Notes under the pieces: generated by a model
Told to the model about the DNA's origin: nothing
What the model saw: only the letters and a program-made list of their open reading frames with translations
The model's database searches: none
Shown here: positions 15,096 through 24,353 of the stretch, piece after piece
How positions within the stretch are numbered: the stretch's first letter is position 1
Layout of the letters: each line of letters starts with the position of its first letter
Source of the DNA: a virus
DNA length: 40,451 bases
IMG/VR virus record: IMGVR_UViG_3300034068_000207
Location: 1-40,451 of that record
Direction: 5' to 3' (one strand)
Program-made: the position numbers and the translations under genes

Positions 15096-17072
15096 CTAAA
15101 TCCAAGAAGGTCGCCACTGTTTCGGTGGGGTAATACCTTGTCGCAGTTTTGGTGCATGTAGTTCAGCAAACCAGTGTGCCATCACAAGGTCAGTACCCGC
15201 CTTTTTGTCTCTAGTCCACGAAGACATCTCCTCAATGAACGCCAAAGTCTTCCAGTTCTCGCGCATCGTAGGCAAACGAACCTGACCAGAACGCCACAAG
15301 TTAGGTAGCAACGCTTCGACACCCAAGTTTTCGTCTAGTTTGTTGCGGCTAGTGGTGTGAGGTATCACGTTTACGGTATGTAATGCCTGCCATTTGCGAA
15401 CAAAGTCGTGTGCCAACAAGAATCGTTGTGCAGCGTTCACTTCCACAATCCAGTGGGAGATTGGGTAGCCGTACTCAAACGACCTGTTCTGCCAATCTTC
15501 CATGATCCCTGAATAGGTGCGCCCCGAAATGTCGTATCCCAACAATCCTTCAGCAGTAAGTTTTACGCGCTCACAATCAATCAGGAATCGCAGGTTGGTT
15601 TCAGGTTGATAGATCCACCATTGGATAGCCCAAAACATTGTTGGTGACGGGTCAACTGAAGCAATCGAAATGAGTGGTGGCTGCAAGTTTTGTGGAATAT
15701 GTCCTGGTCGACGATCATTGTCAATACACCCTGGATACATCACACCGTCAGCACCCACACCGCCGGTAGCCCACACCCGTTCAATGAGGTAGTTGCCTTC
15801 AGCTTGATCTTCTTGCTGATACACCACAGCAAACTTTGCAGGGTTAGAGTGCTTCACATACGACAGGTCTTTCCATGAAAGACGGTACGGGTCTAGCAGT
15901 GGGCCTTCAGGCCATGCTGGTGAACTGTTACGTTTAGACGCTTTACCTGTGTCTAGTTCTTCGTAATACGCTTTGTAGATGAGGTGGTGGTACTTGTGTT
16001 TTTTGAGGGGTTCTTTGTCTTCGGAGATGTCCGTGGTGTCTGACCCGTCGTAGTTGTCTTCGAAATCTTCGTACGTGATTTTGGAGAGGCAGTGGGCGTA
16101 GAGGTCAAGTGGTCCGAGTCTTTGTCCGACAACTGCGAGAAGGCCGCCTGGGTCGACGCGAGCTTCTGCCATTGAGTCCCATCGTTCAATAAGTTTATCT
16201 CGTGCCGCACTTTCTTTAGCATTTTCCGGACTCGCAACGTCGTCAAATAAGCAGAGATCCGCACGGTGGCCAATGAACTCAGACTCGATACCATAAGCAC
16301 TAACAGTAGGTTCCTTGTTGTCCAGTCCACCCATGTCCTCCTGTTCGACAATAAATTCTTCGGCTCGCCACAGGCTACCACTTGTTGAAGGCTTAAACCT
16401 ACCAAAGTCTATGGCAAGACATGCTTCGGCTTTGATGGCTAATCCTTTGTCTATCAGGATCGGGTCAGGGTCTAACGGGAACTGGCGTTCTAAGGTTTCA
16501 CGGATACGGCGCGAATACATTTTTGCCAGTGCTTGTGACACGGAGCCGATCATCACACGAATTTTGCGGTTCTTTACTATCTGCCACACAGCCACATCGT
16601 GGAACAACGTGGATTTGCCTGCACCTGGGGGACAGTTCAACACCACAAACTCTTTATCGTCGTTGTAAAGCCATGCTTCGATCTGGTATGCGGCATCAAC
16701 CTGCCACGGGGAAGGCACACGACCCAAATAGCGTCTACGGAAATAATCAAAATCGGTTAACGCCCGTTGCGCTTCAGGTTTTAGACGGTCATACGGAATA
16801 ACCGGTGGCAAATCGGACACATCCATAACTTTTTGCCATGCGTCAGCTTGTACGCCACCTTCTTTTTTGCGTACTTTAGCCCCATCAAGGTTCGCTAACT
16901 CCAACTCAGCCTTTACTTTACGCTTCTTGGAGTCCCATTTTTGTGCGGTGTTGATATGCACACCAGCGATCTTCGCTGCATCTTTGATTGACATACCTGA
17001 TGCCCGTGCTTGCCAAAACCTTGCAACATCTTGTGGCGGTATTTGTCGTCGCCCACTACGGCCTGCTGTCAT
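15096..17072 (-). CDS. Terminase large subunit with N-terminal helix-turn-helix domain (658 aa)
   Basis: This is the DNA-packaging motor: an ATPase that threads DNA into the capsid plus a nuclease that cuts concatemers. The Walker A motif CPPGAGKST is at residues 147-155, and the Walker B motif with catalytic acid, LCLFDD, is near 273-278. The RNase-H-like nuclease domain starts around IASVDPSPT. Unusually, residues about 10-50 form a helix-turn-helix (SGMSIKDAAKIAGVHINTAQKW) like that of small terminase subunits. No separate small subunit was found, so DNA recognition may be fused to the motor. It overlaps the upstream methyltransferase gene by 17 bp. Confidence 0.93.
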   Translation of the reverse strand: MTAGRSGRRQIPPQDVARFWQARASGMSIKDAAKIAGVHINTAQKWDSKKRKVKAELELANLDGAKVRKKEGGVQADAWQKVMDVSDLPPVIPYDRLKPEAQRALTDFDYFRRRYLGRVPSPWQVDAAYQIEAWLYNDDKEFVVLNCPPGAGKSTLFHDVAVWQIVKNRKIRVMIGSVSQALAKMYSRRIRETLERQFPLDPDPILIDKGLAIKAEACLAIDFGRFKPSTSGSLWRAEEFIVEQEDMGGLDNKEPTVSAYGIESEFIGHRADLCLFDDVASPENAKESAARDKLIERWDSMAEARVDPGGLLAVVGQRLGPLDLYAHCLSKITYEDFEDNYDGSDTTDISEDKEPLKKHKYHHLIYKAYYEELDTGKASKRNSSPAWPEGPLLDPYRLSWKDLSYVKHSNPAKFAVVYQQEDQAEGNYLIERVWATGGVGADGVMYPGCIDNDRRPGHIPQNLQPPLISIASVDPSPTMFWAIQWWIYQPETNLRFLIDCERVKLTAEGLLGYDISGRTYSGIMEDWQNRSFEYGYPISHWIVEVNAAQRFLLAHDFVRKWQALHTVNVIPHTTSRNKLDENLGVEALLPNLWRSGQVRLPTMRENWKTLAFIEEMSSWTRDKKAGTDLVMAHWFAELHAPKLRQGITPPKQWRPSWI

Positions 17073-18297
17073 ACACCGAGTTTACACGTGCTTTGGCTAT
17101 CTCAATATATTCTGCCGATTGCTCGACACCAATGAAGTTGAAGCCTTCCAACACAGCTGCCTTGCCTGTCGAACCTGAACCTGTGAACGGGTCAAGAATT
17201 GTCCCGTTTGGTGGGGTGACCAGTCTGCACAAGTATCGCATTAGGTCTGTTGGTTTCACCGTTGGGTGATGGTTGGCTTGCTTTGCAACACCTTTCTCAT
17301 CAAATGTTCCCATCCCTGTTGTAGTTCGTTCGTCAGGGCGTTTCTCAGCGAATCCGTCTAAGCCTTCGTTGCGATCTTTCTTGCTGGCTTTCGCACAATA
17401 AAAGAACCGTGCAGCAGACTGGTTTGGTTTGTCAGACGGGAATAGTTCTAACACTTCGTCTGAACCGTCATGAATAAAGTTCGCAGGGAAACGACCCACA
17501 TGACTTTGATTTTCCAAACGTGTTGCAGGTCTTGGATTTTGACCAAATGAAAGTTTGTCAATCCCAGTTGCTTCTTTACTCATAGCACCAACATCACGCA
17601 GATTTGGCATTGTCCCACCACCAAGAACTTCGTCACCCACTCTGCATCCGTCAATGTTGATACCGCCAACACCATGCGTCAAAACATTGTTGGCAACAGT
17701 TCCATCTAACGGCTTACGAGCCAACACAATCGGTTCGTGCGCTGGTTTAAGTGCCGTTCCCCAACCATTCCACTCTTTAGCCTCATCTGTAGTCGGTTCA
17801 AGTTTTCCCAACCGTGTCGCACTGGCTGTTTCGTCATAGTTTGTATCACGCTGACCATGAGTGAACTGTTGTTTAGCAATACCCCAATCACCACGATCAA
17901 CTTGCTCACCAGCCAAATTCTTGAATGCTGTTTTATTGGCCGAACCCGTCGTGAGTAATCCTTCAATAGATTTGCTTATGTTCAGCGACTTCGGAAACCC
18001 CGACCCGTACACCCACATAATCTGATCCCTGATCTGAAACCCTGCATCCTCGATAGCACACGCCATACGGTGATATGTCCGTGAACCACCGAACGACAAC
18101 AAGTGTCCACCAGGTTTCAACACACGCAAACATTCCTGCCACACCGTCACATCATAAGCAACACCAGACGCATCCCAAGACTTACCCATAAAGCCAAGCT
18201 CATACGGTGGATCAGTCACAATGCTGTCAATCGAATTATCAGCCAACGTTCGCAACACGTCACGACAATCACCAAGCAACAATTCAAATTCCCTCAT
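17056..18297 (-). CDS. DNA adenine-N6 / cytosine-N4 methyltransferase, DPPY type (413 aa)
   Basis: The enzyme transfers a methyl group from S-adenosylmethionine to an exocyclic amino group in DNA. The catalytic motif TDPPY is at residues 34-38, early in the protein. The SAM-binding motif DPFTGSGSTGKAA with EGFNFIGVEQ lies near the C-terminus, which is the beta-class order. About 230 residues lie between them, including the target-recognition region. The canonical start LLGDCRDVL supports the ATG at 18297. No clear ribosome site precedes it and the predicted transcript start is only a few bases upstream, so it may be translated leaderless. The likely role is protection of phage DNA or a timing signal for packaging. 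Confidence 0.92.
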   Translation of the reverse strand: MREFELLLGDCRDVLRTLADNSIDSIVTDPPYELGFMGKSWDASGVAYDVTVWQECLRVLKPGGHLLSFGGSRTYHRMACAIEDAGFQIRDQIMWVYGSGFPKSLNISKSIEGLLTTGSANKTAFKNLAGEQVDRGDWGIAKQQFTHGQRDTNYDETASATRLGKLEPTTDEAKEWNGWGTALKPAHEPIVLARKPLDGTVANNVLTHGVGGINIDGCRVGDEVLGGGTMPNLRDVGAMSKEATGIDKLSFGQNPRPATRLENQSHVGRFPANFIHDGSDEVLELFPSDKPNQSAARFFYCAKASKKDRNEGLDGFAEKRPDERTTTGMGTFDEKGVAKQANHHPTVKPTDLMRYLCRLVTPPNGTILDPFTGSGSTGKAAVLEGFNFIGVEQSAEYIEIAKARVNSVYDSRP

Positions 18298-19848: not shown

Positions 19849-20142
19849 ATGCGAGATAATGCACTATTCATGCCGCGACTTGTCGCGAACGTAAAATTAT
19901 GGGGGGTTATCGACGATGAAGAGCGCGACGCTTTAATTAGTTGGATCACCTTCAAGTTCAAAAATTCAAAACTTGATGCAAAAATCTATCTAGTTGGCGA
20001 CGATGAGGGCGCACCAATTGTCGGGATTCGATTCAATGGTTGCGACATTGACCGAGTAGCTAAAACTTTAGACATCACTGCAAGCGATCTACTATCGCGT
20101 GAAGTTGGTCTAGGCAACCCGTACGAAGTTAGGGGGCAATGA
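19849..20142 (+). CDS. Small protein of unknown function (97 aa)
   Basis: The ATG follows GAGAGGGG with good spacing. The protein looks compact and mixed alpha/beta: EERDALISWITFKFKNSKL, AKIYLVGDDEGAPIVGIRF and a C-terminal VAKTLDITASDLLSREVG. No motif or family is recognised. The stop overlaps the next start as ATGA, so it is coupled to the 117-aa gene. Confidence 0.7.
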   Translation: MRDNALFMPRLVANVKLWGVIDDEERDALISWITFKFKNSKLDAKIYLVGDDEGAPIVGIRFNGCDIDRVAKTLDITASDLLSREVGLGNPYEVRGQ

Positions 20143-20492
20143 TGGAATCAGTGACAGATAATCGGGGTGCAGTGTTGACCCGTGGCAAGTGGGAATCGAT
20201 GACTAATGTGCAATATGAGAATCGGGCAAGGGGGCAGCATTGGTTTAATGAGTCCACTCTACGATTCTTCGGGAGTCGTATCGGTGGCCGTGTATATGGT
20301 GGCCGATTCTTTATAAGTTCGGAGCGCGATAGTTACGGGGCATGGGGTGGCCAACGCCGTTACACGATCCGGATCGTGCGCGACGATGCAGACATCGACA
20401 CTTGGGGGGATCATGGCCAATTTGGGAGCCGTTCAGGTGCTGTCAAGTGTGCAGAGCGTTTAGCAAAACAACTACAACAAGGGGGCTACTAG
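20139..20492 (+). CDS. Basic protein of unknown function (117 aa)
   Basis: Two consecutive ATG codons start it (20139 or 20142); the first overlaps the previous stop. The centre is rich in Arg, Gly and aromatics (FFGSRIGGRVYGGRFFISSE; GGQRRYTIRIVRDDADIDTW) and predicted beta-structured, followed by a short helix (AVKCAERLAKQLQQ). This strand-rich core with an amphipathic helix could bind nucleic acid or protein. No family is recognised. Confidence 0.65.
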   Translation: MMESVTDNRGAVLTRGKWESMTNVQYENRARGQHWFNESTLRFFGSRIGGRVYGGRFFISSERDSYGAWGGQRRYTIRIVRDDADIDTWGDHGQFGSRSGAVKCAERLAKQLQQGGY

Positions 20493-22183: not shown

Positions 22184-22297
22184 GCTGATCATCTCGATTG
22201 GTTTATGTTTGTTATCACATACAGGTGGCTGAACAAGACGAATGTAGGTGGTAATCGTTTGTTTGCATTGTGGGCATGACCAGGTTTGTTTGTTCAT
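22175..22297 (-). CDS. 40-aa zinc-finger-like miniprotein
   Basis: The ATG at 22297 overlaps the stop of the cytosine methyltransferase (TGATG). The product reads W-S-C-P-Q-C-K near its start, then YIRLVQPPVCDNKH, giving CxxC plus a later Cys and His that could bind one zinc. Small proteins of this shape are common in actinobacterial phages, though their function is unknown. It is the last gene of the leftward unit; its stop codon lies in the right arm of the opposing terminator. Confidence 0.6.
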   Translation of the reverse strand: MNKQTWSCPQCKQTITTYIRLVQPPVCDNKHKPIEMISKK

Positions 22298-24111
22298 CAG
22301 ATTGCCAAGATATGTTTTGCGATCCATTGGGCTACTGGTGATGCGACTCCGTTGCCTGCCTGCTTATACCGGTGTGAGTCGGCTTGCTCTGTGCCGTCGG
22401 CTTTGTATCTAGTGTGATCATCAGGCCATCCCATCAACCGTTCACATTCAAGTGGCATGAGTCGACGCACCGCCATTGTTGGTTCTAGTACACCTGTGGA
22501 TTGTTTTGTTCCTGCACGGAGCGCGTGATGCACCTCGTTGGTGCTGTCGTTGTATTCATCGTAGGCTACAGCGTGACGATCACCGCCTGTAAGCGTATTC
22601 ATTGGGTCACTTGCACCCCCAATTCCTAAACCATTTCCCTTACCATCTTGTTTGTCACCGCGCTTTCCGGAGTGCCGTGTTGCTTGGTCATGTATCGGAT
22701 AGGCAACGCTCGGTGATTGCTGTGATGCTTTAAGTGTTGGCGAAACGTTCTCGGTGACATTGGCGTTGCTGCCAAACTGTGTATCAAACGCTAAGGTCGG
22801 TTCAGCAACCATCGGTGTATTGTTGCCACCGGTACCCATCATCGCTGATAGCGAGTGCATAACTTTTTCTTGGATTCGTGCTTCTCCACTCATGTGTGCC
22901 TGAAAGAAGATGGGTTCCTCAACTATGGCATGTCCATCTCTTATGGATTCGTGATTGGTTGCTGTTACCCTGGCTTGTAGTGAGCCAACAATTTCTTTGA
23001 CAGGGTTATTTTTCATTTGTACTGGTTCAACGATGGCTGTTGTGGCACGGGTATCACCAACATCAAACGAGTTTAGTGTCGGGTTCACTTGGCCAGGTAT
23101 CCAAGTTTCTGAATCGTCAGAGGTTTGCGCACGACTTGACTTCACATACGGTTCGGTCACTAATTTATTTTCAGCAACATACTGGTTTCCTACACCTTTG
23201 TAATCACGTGCAGCAAGCGCACCGACGACATCTTGTTCAACTACAGCCTGAAACCGTTGCTTATCTGGCATACGTTGCTCATTGGATGTTGTTGTCAATG
23301 CTTCGGCTGTGTCTTTACCATCCCACCATGCGCCATCATCGACGACCATGTTGTAATATTCAGAACCACTCGGTCCACCTGAACCTTTGCTCCATTTAGA
23401 AGTCACACTTGTTCTAAGGATGTCCCCGTCGGGGGTTGTTCCGGCAGCCCATTGACCATCTGTTCCAACGCTCGTTGCAGTCTCAACGGCAGCACTTTTC
23501 CTCGCCGGTTTGCCCTTCGCAAGATTCCCTGGCAAGCTTTTGGCGACAGGTAGTAACGGGGTTGGACATCGGCTGGCAAGGACAGGATCAAAGATAGCGA
23601 TGACGAACACGCGCCTTCGTCGTTGGGGTATTCCGAAGTATTGTGCGTCCAGCACACTCCATTCGATTGCCACCGCCCCTGCTTCAGCCATTTCGTTGAG
23701 GATGATCCCGAAGTCAGCCCCTCCGTTGGAGTTAAGTGCGCCGACGACGTTCTCCCAAATAGAGATTCTTGGATATTGTCCATTAGTTTCCTCCTGTAGT
23801 TCTTTGATAATTCGGATACCTTCGTGAAATAAACTTGACCTACCACCTTCTAACCCTGCTCGTTTGCCTGCAACGGACAGGTCTTGGCATGGTGAACCCC
23901 ATGCGACAACATCAACGACAGGTGCATGAGCAAGGATATGCTTGCCTGTCAGCGTAGATACATCATCCCATTTTGGGACATCAGGCCAATGCTTATACAG
24001 AATGCTGTTGGCATGTTTGTCCCATTCACATTGAAACACTGTTTCCATACCGGCGTTCTCTAAACCCATGTCGAACCCACCAACACCGCTAAACAAACTT
24101 AAAACTTTCAT
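22297..24111 (-). CDS. DNA cytosine-C5 methyltransferase with repeat-filled recognition region (604 aa)
   Basis: The enzyme adds a methyl group to carbon 5 of cytosine in DNA. Visible motifs are I (LFSGVGGFDMGLE, 6-18), IV with catalytic Cys75 (GSPCQDLSVAG), VI (WENVVGA, 119-125), VIII (QRRRRVFVIA, 163-172), IX-like (RRLMPLECERLMGWPDD, 549-565) and X (YKQAGNGVASPVA, 582-594). The start at 24111 follows GGAGGAAACAGG and overlaps the upstream stop. Between motifs VIII and IX are about 370 residues, where a target-recognition domain is usually 100-200. They contain about eight degenerate units ending in V.[EY]P or similar. The likely role is evasion of host restriction. Confidence 0.93.
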   Translation of the reverse strand: MKVLSLFSGVGGFDMGLENAGMETVFQCEWDKHANSILYKHWPDVPKWDDVSTLTGKHILAHAPVVDVVAWGSPCQDLSVAGKRAGLEGGRSSLFHEGIRIIKELQEETNGQYPRISIWENVVGALNSNGGADFGIILNEMAEAGAVAIEWSVLDAQYFGIPQRRRRVFVIAIFDPVLASRCPTPLLPVAKSLPGNLAKGKPARKSAAVETATSVGTDGQWAAGTTPDGDILRTSVTSKWSKGSGGPSGSEYYNMVVDDGAWWDGKDTAEALTTTSNEQRMPDKQRFQAVVEQDVVGALAARDYKGVGNQYVAENKLVTEPYVKSSRAQTSDDSETWIPGQVNPTLNSFDVGDTRATTAIVEPVQMKNNPVKEIVGSLQARVTATNHESIRDGHAIVEEPIFFQAHMSGEARIQEKVMHSLSAMMGTGGNNTPMVAEPTLAFDTQFGSNANVTENVSPTLKASQQSPSVAYPIHDQATRHSGKRGDKQDGKGNGLGIGGASDPMNTLTGGDRHAVAYDEYNDSTNEVHHALRAGTKQSTGVLEPTMAVRRLMPLECERLMGWPDDHTRYKADGTEQADSHRYKQAGNGVASPVAQWIAKHILAI

Positions 24112-24353
24112 CCTGTTTCCTCCAATGTCATAGTGAACCAATCATCCCAAATTTCGCAGGGATGTAAACCTAATTTAATTGCGTAACGATCTGCTTCGTA
24201 AGCATTAAATCGTATTTGTCTTTCAATCCATTTGTATACGGTTGATCGACCGATGCCTAAAATTTCTGCAACATTTGTGTTTGTTGTATCTGGGCCAAAG
24301 GATTTGATAATTTCTGTTGCCAAATATTTGCGATCATATTGTGGGTCTTTCAT
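24108..24353 (-). CDS. Helix-turn-helix protein (81 aa)
   Basis: Residues about 22-45 form a clear helix-turn-helix (NVAEILGIGRSTVYKWIERQ), followed by YEADRYAIKLGLHPCEIW. That second segment is the pattern of actinobacterial and phage regulators or excision-like proteins that sit on specific DNA. It lies between a replication-like small gene and the methyltransferase, overlapping the latter by four bases, and may regulate this block. A repressor role cannot be shown. Confidence 0.78.
   Translation of the reverse strand: MKDPQYDRKYLATEIIKSFGPDTTNTNVAEILGIGRSTVYKWIERQIRFNAYEADRYAIKLGLHPCEIWDDWFTMTLEETG

What the first reader, a model, noticed from the sequence alone, without database searches (positions are those of the whole stretch)
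22297..24111. Cytosine-C5 methyltransferase whose recognition region is an array of about eight degenerate units
Between motif VIII and the C-terminal motifs lie about 370 residues. Units start with a Leu-containing turn and most end in V-x-[EY]-P or similar: around residues 269-292, 295-320, 342-363, 374-400, 417-438, 456-472, 503-518 and 526-544 (for example GALAARDYKGVGNQYV, PTLNSFDVGDTRATTAIVEP, HSLSAMMGTGGNNTPMVAEP, NTLTGGDRHAVAYD). Multi-specific phage C5 methyltransferases carry several recognition segments in this place. Here the segments are much smaller and look like beads made by repeated duplication, so one enzyme might read several sites or a variable site.
Basis: partly seen in the sequence, partly recalled or inferred. 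Interest (0 to 1): 0.75.

Follow-up and report, generated by a model that had tools for sequence, protein, structure and literature searches.

The report
Phage methyltransferase with nine swappable recognition cassettes
A freshwater-type phage encodes a cytosine DNA-methylating enzyme whose DNA-reading part is a string of about nine small modules, drawn from a pool of 30 or more modules that related phages mix in different sets, probably so that one enzyme protects the phage against many bacterial restriction enzymes.

Summary
ORF 22300-24111 (-), 604 aa, is a C5-cytosine methyltransferase with an intact catalytic core (res. 1-175) and C-terminal motifs (544-604). In relatives, core and C-terminus keep their length while the middle runs from 101 to 487 aa. 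It is assembled from a pool of at least 30 recurring cassettes: 64 different arrangements among 76 proteins. Enzymes with 97.5% identical core DNA carry different cassette sets. Cassettes are under strong purifying selection (dN/dS 0.03-0.11). Some relatives have a single unit in an enzyme of M.HhaI size, so one unit can evidently serve as a whole recognition domain. One cassette family is homologous to a recognition segment of phage SPbeta's MTase, from the known multispecific group, with the same residue spacing. The most likely function is anti-restriction: one catalytic core, many alternative TRDs. The claims of "much smaller" segments and "repeated duplication" are not: unit size equals known TRDs, and no recent duplicates exist. 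AlphaFold could not model the array. Specificities are unmeasured. Verdict: new variant of a known kind.

The parts
23587..24111 (-). catalytic core, residues 1-175 (SLFSGVGG, GSPCQD, ENV, QRRRR motifs)
   Evidence: Pfam PF00145 match 1-173; invariant columns in alignment A1
23458..23586 (-). conserved leader, residues 176-218, before the array
   Evidence: conserved positions P188, K199, K201 etc. in A1; present in single-unit relatives too
   Evidence: recurs as a block in L003, L008, L013
23239..23340 (-). cassette H, residues 258-291 (anchor A271-L)
   Evidence: recurs in L011, L018, L020, L031, L042, L081
23155..23238 (-). cassette R, residues 292-319 (anchor A298-L)
   Evidence: recurs in L008, L009, L022; unit HMM E 6e-9
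23026..23154 (-). cassette A, residues 320-362 (anchor T345-L)
   Evidence: 29 of 64 architectures; unit HMM E 8e-6; dN/dS 0.14
22918..23025 (-). cassette B, residues 363-398 (anchor S377-L)
   Evidence: recurs in L003, L004, L043
22801..22917 (-). cassette C, residues 399-437 (anchor S420-L; Arg at -8 of the anchor, MGTGGNN after it)
   Evidence: recurs in L003, L013, L030, L043; unit HMM E 5e-7
22702..22800 (-). cassette D, residues 438-470 (anchor T459-L; Asn at -8)
   Evidence: 37 of 64 architectures, 28 neighbour contexts; dN/dS 0.10
22564..22701 (-). cassette E, residues 471-516 (anchor T506-L; NG at -13/-12 and DRH at +5 to +7)
   Evidence: same spacing and DRH as the second TL-centred segment of SPbeta MtbP; absent in L003, which is otherwise nearly identical here
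22483..22563 (-). cassette F, residues 517-543 (anchor A530-L)
   Evidence: 22 of 64 architectures; dN/dS 0.09
22300..22482 (-). C-terminal motifs IX-X, residues 544-604
   Evidence: second Pfam piece; constant length in relatives
24108..24353 (-). 81-aa helix-turn-helix protein whose gene overlaps the MTase start; possible regulator
   Evidence: weak HTH matches; 4-base overlap

Best explanation
A phage orphan C5-cytosine methyltransferase with one catalytic core and a tandem array of about nine alternative target recognition domains (TRDs), each a TL-centred unit of about 37 aa. Each TRD probably docks in turn against the core and brings a different short cytosine-containing site to it, so one enzyme methylates several sites and shields phage DNA from several host restriction enzymes. 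Related phages tune the set by gaining, losing and exchanging whole cassettes by recombination. Shown by sequence: the array, the shared unit profile, cassette turnover, horizontal exchange, purifying selection, single-unit relatives, and homology of one cassette family to a recognition segment of SPbeta's MTase. Inferred: that each unit reads its own site, and the anti-restriction role.
For: Core and C-terminus constant, middle 101-487 aa. 64 arrangements in 76 proteins. Near-identical cores with different arrays: L057/L058 and L012/L017, core DNA 97.5% identical; window vs L003 differ by H+R in place of G and by gain of E, with the shared parts identical or nearly so. Horizontal exchange: cassette S 95% identical in L023/L043 while the core is 74%; L012/L054 array pS 0.07 vs core 0.18. 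Purifying selection: array dN/dS 0.03-0.11, core 0.02-0.11. Single-unit relatives of 330-345 aa, e.g. L130 with cassette M alone and L167 with an L-type unit. SPbeta MtbP second segment vs cassettes scores 64, best of 60 shuffles 48; cassette E repeats its NG...T-x4-DRH spacing. Published: TL motif at the centre of each TRD (PMC2413257); Bacillus phage MTases carry tandem TRDs with multiple targets (PMC8936443; PMC5923457).
Against: No methylation data. AF2 left the array (res. 190-551) at pLDDT 20-30, and even the single unit of L130 below 50, so a TRD fold is not shown. The first SPbeta segment does not match the pool above chance (40 vs shuffle max 46). Several units lack the textbook TL (anchors SV, AL, SL). 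Which of the nine are functional is unknown.
Confidence: 0.75

Rival explanations
1. Only one or two units are active TRDs; the rest are passengers or linkers kept by recombination.
For: Known multispecific enzymes carry few TRDs; array not foldable by AF2.
Against: Shared cassettes all show dN/dS well below 1; the same cassette occurs in many positions and also alone.
Confidence: 0.13
2. The units act together as one extended DNA-binding surface that reads a long or variable site, or gives processive, low-specificity methylation.
For: Many similar TL units in a row with short linkers.
Against: Enzymes with a single unit exist; unit number varies about tenfold without change in the core; units diverge strongly from each other, which a uniform surface would not need.
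Confidence: 0.09
3. The middle is a disordered decoy or spacer whose length varies neutrally.
For: Low AF2 confidence.
Against: Strong purifying selection and exact cassette recurrence across lineages.
Confidence: 0.03

Closest known systems
Multispecific C5-MTases of Bacillus phages (SPbeta/phi3T/SPR/H2 group; SPbeta MtbP read here)
   Same: Phage-borne orphan enzyme; several TL-centred segments in tandem between motif VIII and IX; segment size about 40 aa; one segment homologous to cassettes E/I.
   Different: Two segments in SPbeta (triple specificity reported for SPR, title cited in PMC8936443), against nine here; here the pool has 30 or more cassettes and rapid set turnover.
M.HhaI / M.HaeIII (single-TRD C5-MTases with solved structures)
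   Same: Core and C-terminus homologous; best Foldseek matches of L130, E 7e-20; TL-centred TRD (PMC2413257).
   Different: One TRD; no array.
Array-bearing C5-MTases in isolated phages (Akkermansia phage Chantilly, Pseudomonas phage D14E, Pasteurella phage Pm86)
   Same: By eye about 5-7 TL-type units each between VIII and IX; annotated only as DNA-cytosine methyltransferase or methylase.
   Different: More distant cores and mostly different cassettes.
Type I HsdS / exchangeable TRD systems
   Same: Modular, exchangeable recognition domains.
   Different: Works like it only in the sense of swapping; from general knowledge these are unrelated proteins with large TRDs, two per subunit.

Membership tests
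C5-cytosine DNA methyltransferase (PF00145) | Catalytic and cofactor motifs (SLFSG, PCQ, ENV, QRRRR) and C-terminal motifs in order | tested here: met
   183 bits, cut-off 22; invariant columns around S5-G9, P74-Q76, E120-V122, Q163-R167, and the C-terminal block
Multispecific phage C5-MTase | Phage-borne, no cognate endonuclease | tested here: met
   virus record; no endonuclease family found for the neighbours scanned; not every ORF was scanned
Multispecific phage C5-MTase | Two or more TL-centred recognition segments in tandem between motif VIII and IX | tested here: met
   nine anchors, mean spacing 37 aa; unit profile with controls
Multispecific phage C5-MTase | Segments homologous to those of the characterised enzymes | tested here: inconclusive
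   second SPbeta segment: score 64 vs shuffle max 48 against the pool (50 against the window itself); first segment: 40 vs 46, not above chance
Multispecific phage C5-MTase | Methylates more than one target sequence | not testable with these tools
   needs a methylome
TRD fold of M.HhaI / M.HaeIII | Unit folds as the small-domain recognition loops around TL | tested here: inconclusive
   array and single unit modelled below pLDDT 50
   no within-array pair above about 70% identity among the distinct arrays compared

The most novel reading that the evidence does not exclude
A natural combinatorial TRD library: one methyltransferase core with up to about ten independent recognition cassettes, the set being rewritten by recombination faster than the core evolves, so that a phage population carries a changing multi-site anti-restriction repertoire encoded in a single gene.
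Probability: 0.55. Interest if true: 0.78.

Novelty: new variant of a known kind. Interest (0 to 1): 0.6.

Why it matters
If each cassette reads its own site, this is a large natural collection of interchangeable TRDs of about 37 aa with an existing single-unit chassis. The residue-to-base code of C5-MTases could then be worked out cassette by cassette. It would also show how phages keep pace with diverse host restriction systems with one gene. Eight searches of the open-access literature found multispecific Bacillus phage MTases, but no description of arrays of this size or of a cassette pool; subscription literature was not searchable.

Tried and rejected
Ungapped BLOSUM self-alignment of the single protein: not significant. 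AlphaFold on the full protein with 26 sequences and on the single-unit relative L130 with 30: core good, unit region unmodelled; Foldseek on the latter only confirms the M.HhaI-type core. Strict cassette order: a hand-made regular-expression count suggested that 133 of 136 cassette pairs keep one order; an unguided ungapped-BLAST count lowered this to 97% collinear for close cores and 79-86% for more distant ones, so order is biased, not fixed. A gapped-BLAST version was discarded because it merges collinear blocks and so counts mostly the exceptions. Two single cassettes against isolated phages by tblastn: almost no hits, so these cassettes look specific to this environmental group at that sensitivity. 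Prediction of actual target sites from the published N-TL/C-TL trimers: only hints (Arg -8 in C, Asn -8 in D, DRH in E), not claimed. Diversity-generating retroelements or inversion systems: no reverse transcriptase or invertase among the ORFs scanned; not examined further.

Full report
What is there. The ORF at 22300-24111 on the minus strand (stop 22297-22299) encodes 604 aa. Residues 1-175 and 544-604 are the two halves of a C5-cytosine methyltransferase (PF00145, 183 bits, cut-off 22), most like M.HhaI among solved structures. The window is a virus record with a WhiB-like protein, a YqaJ-type nuclease and an annealing protein nearby. The gene follows a small helix-turn-helix gene with a 4-base overlap.

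Is the array real? In this protein alone, self-alignment is no better than shuffled sequence. A profile of the unit finds 351 matches in the middles of 76 relatives and none in shuffled or reversed copies (seeded from the same proteins). When each of 29 cassette families is left out in turn, the families as a group still score above windows with the same anchor from other ORFs (p = 2e-5). The common core is roughly [GED][ED][VI][AS]P-T-L-x-A-x-G. In some relatives, two units of one array are 50-68% identical to each other over 22-32 aa. In the window protein the anchors are at 235, 271, 298, 345, 377, 420, 459, 506 and 530, nine units.

What varies. In 107 distinct middles of relatives the length is 101-487 aa while the flanks stay constant. 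Tokenising 76 of them by recurring cassettes gives 64 distinct arrangements; cassette D alone occurs in 28 neighbour contexts. The window reads W-H-R-A-B-C-D-E-F; its neighbour L003 reads W-G-A-B-C-D-F, with nearly identical sequence in the shared parts. Proteins with 97.5% identical core DNA have different sets (L057/L058, L012/L017). In other pairs a cassette, or the whole array, is more alike than the core (L023/L043 cassette S 95% vs core 74%; L012/L054 array pS 0.07 vs core 0.18). So whole cassettes are exchanged and the array turns over faster than the core. Junctions lie in short shared linkers (VxEP, VAY), as where cassette E sits between two VAY motifs in the window and is absent in L003.

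Order and duplication. Shared blocks keep their relative order in 97% of cases for close cores and 79-86% for more distant ones (50% expected at random). A hand-made count that suggested nearly fixed order was too optimistic. No array has near-identical duplicates. The picture is exchange of distinct modules, not recent beads by duplication; an ancient common origin of units is likely.

Is each unit a TRD? Four lines point that way. (1) Relatives of 330-345 aa, the size of M.HhaI, have exactly one unit: L130 carries cassette M, which others carry inside arrays, and L167 an L-type unit. (2) Each unit has one TL-type anchor, as do TRDs of known enzymes, where the residues on both sides of TL contact the bases (PMC2413257). 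(3) SPbeta's MTase has two TL-centred segments of the same format. The second is homologous to cassettes I and E (score 64; best of 60 shuffles 48), and cassette E in the window repeats its NG...T-x4-DRH spacing. The first segment does not match above chance. That tandem TRDs give Bacillus phage MTases several targets is published (PMC8936443; PMC5923457); that SPbeta belongs to that group and reads GGCC and GCNGC is from memory. (4) Shared array blocks have dN/dS 0.03-0.11, like the core, so the units do something. These estimates are somewhat low-biased because only recognisably similar blocks were compared. Fold evidence is missing: AlphaFold2 left the array and even a single unit unmodelled, which may reflect shallow alignments as much as anything.

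Function. An orphan phage enzyme with many exchangeable TRDs is best explained as broad anti-restriction. That step is inference from the known multispecific enzymes. Rivals (few active units; one composite binding surface; neutral spacer) are less well supported, as detailed in the fields.

Generality. Isolated phages of Akkermansia, Pseudomonas and Pasteurella have MTases that by eye contain about 5-7 units, annotated only as cytosine methyltransferases or methylases. I found no open-access description of arrays of this size or of a cassette pool, but the classic TRD papers (PMC450048, PMC457134) are not held. Hence: new variant of a known kind.

Noticed in passing
window 17056-18297 (-): A second DNA methyltransferase of the N6/N4 class (PF01555, E 8e-34) whose match spans residues 23-402 for a 221-position profile, i.e. 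with a large internal insert.
   Followed up: no
L173:580-2463 (Mycobacterium phage Bombitas): The related MTase is split into two adjacent genes, the second starting with TL-type units; other mycobacteriophages in the hit list have an HNH gene between the halves.
   Followed up: partly
window 22309-23049 (-), P0001 residues 355-601: PHROG family 864, labelled DNA primase, matches the array and C-terminal part at its positions 828-1051 (E 4e-20), suggesting primase-MTase fusions or a mislabelled family.
   Followed up: no
L092:1900-2787, L114:2501-3397, L141:2501-3397: Very short relatives (296-299 aa) with a single compact unit of the form F-Y-x-S-x-G-x-Q-D between leader and motif IX; possibly the minimal natural form.
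   Followed up: partly
L070:3966-6128 and L078: Largest arrays (middle 486-487 aa); their cores differ little (pS 0.10) but their arrays much more (pS 0.37) in spite of nearly the same cassettes, a sign of array-wide recombination.
   Followed up: partly
window 20139-20492 (+): Small protein of family DUF7447 (PF24239, E 1e-14) in the opposite-strand gene cluster next to the MTase.
   Followed up: no
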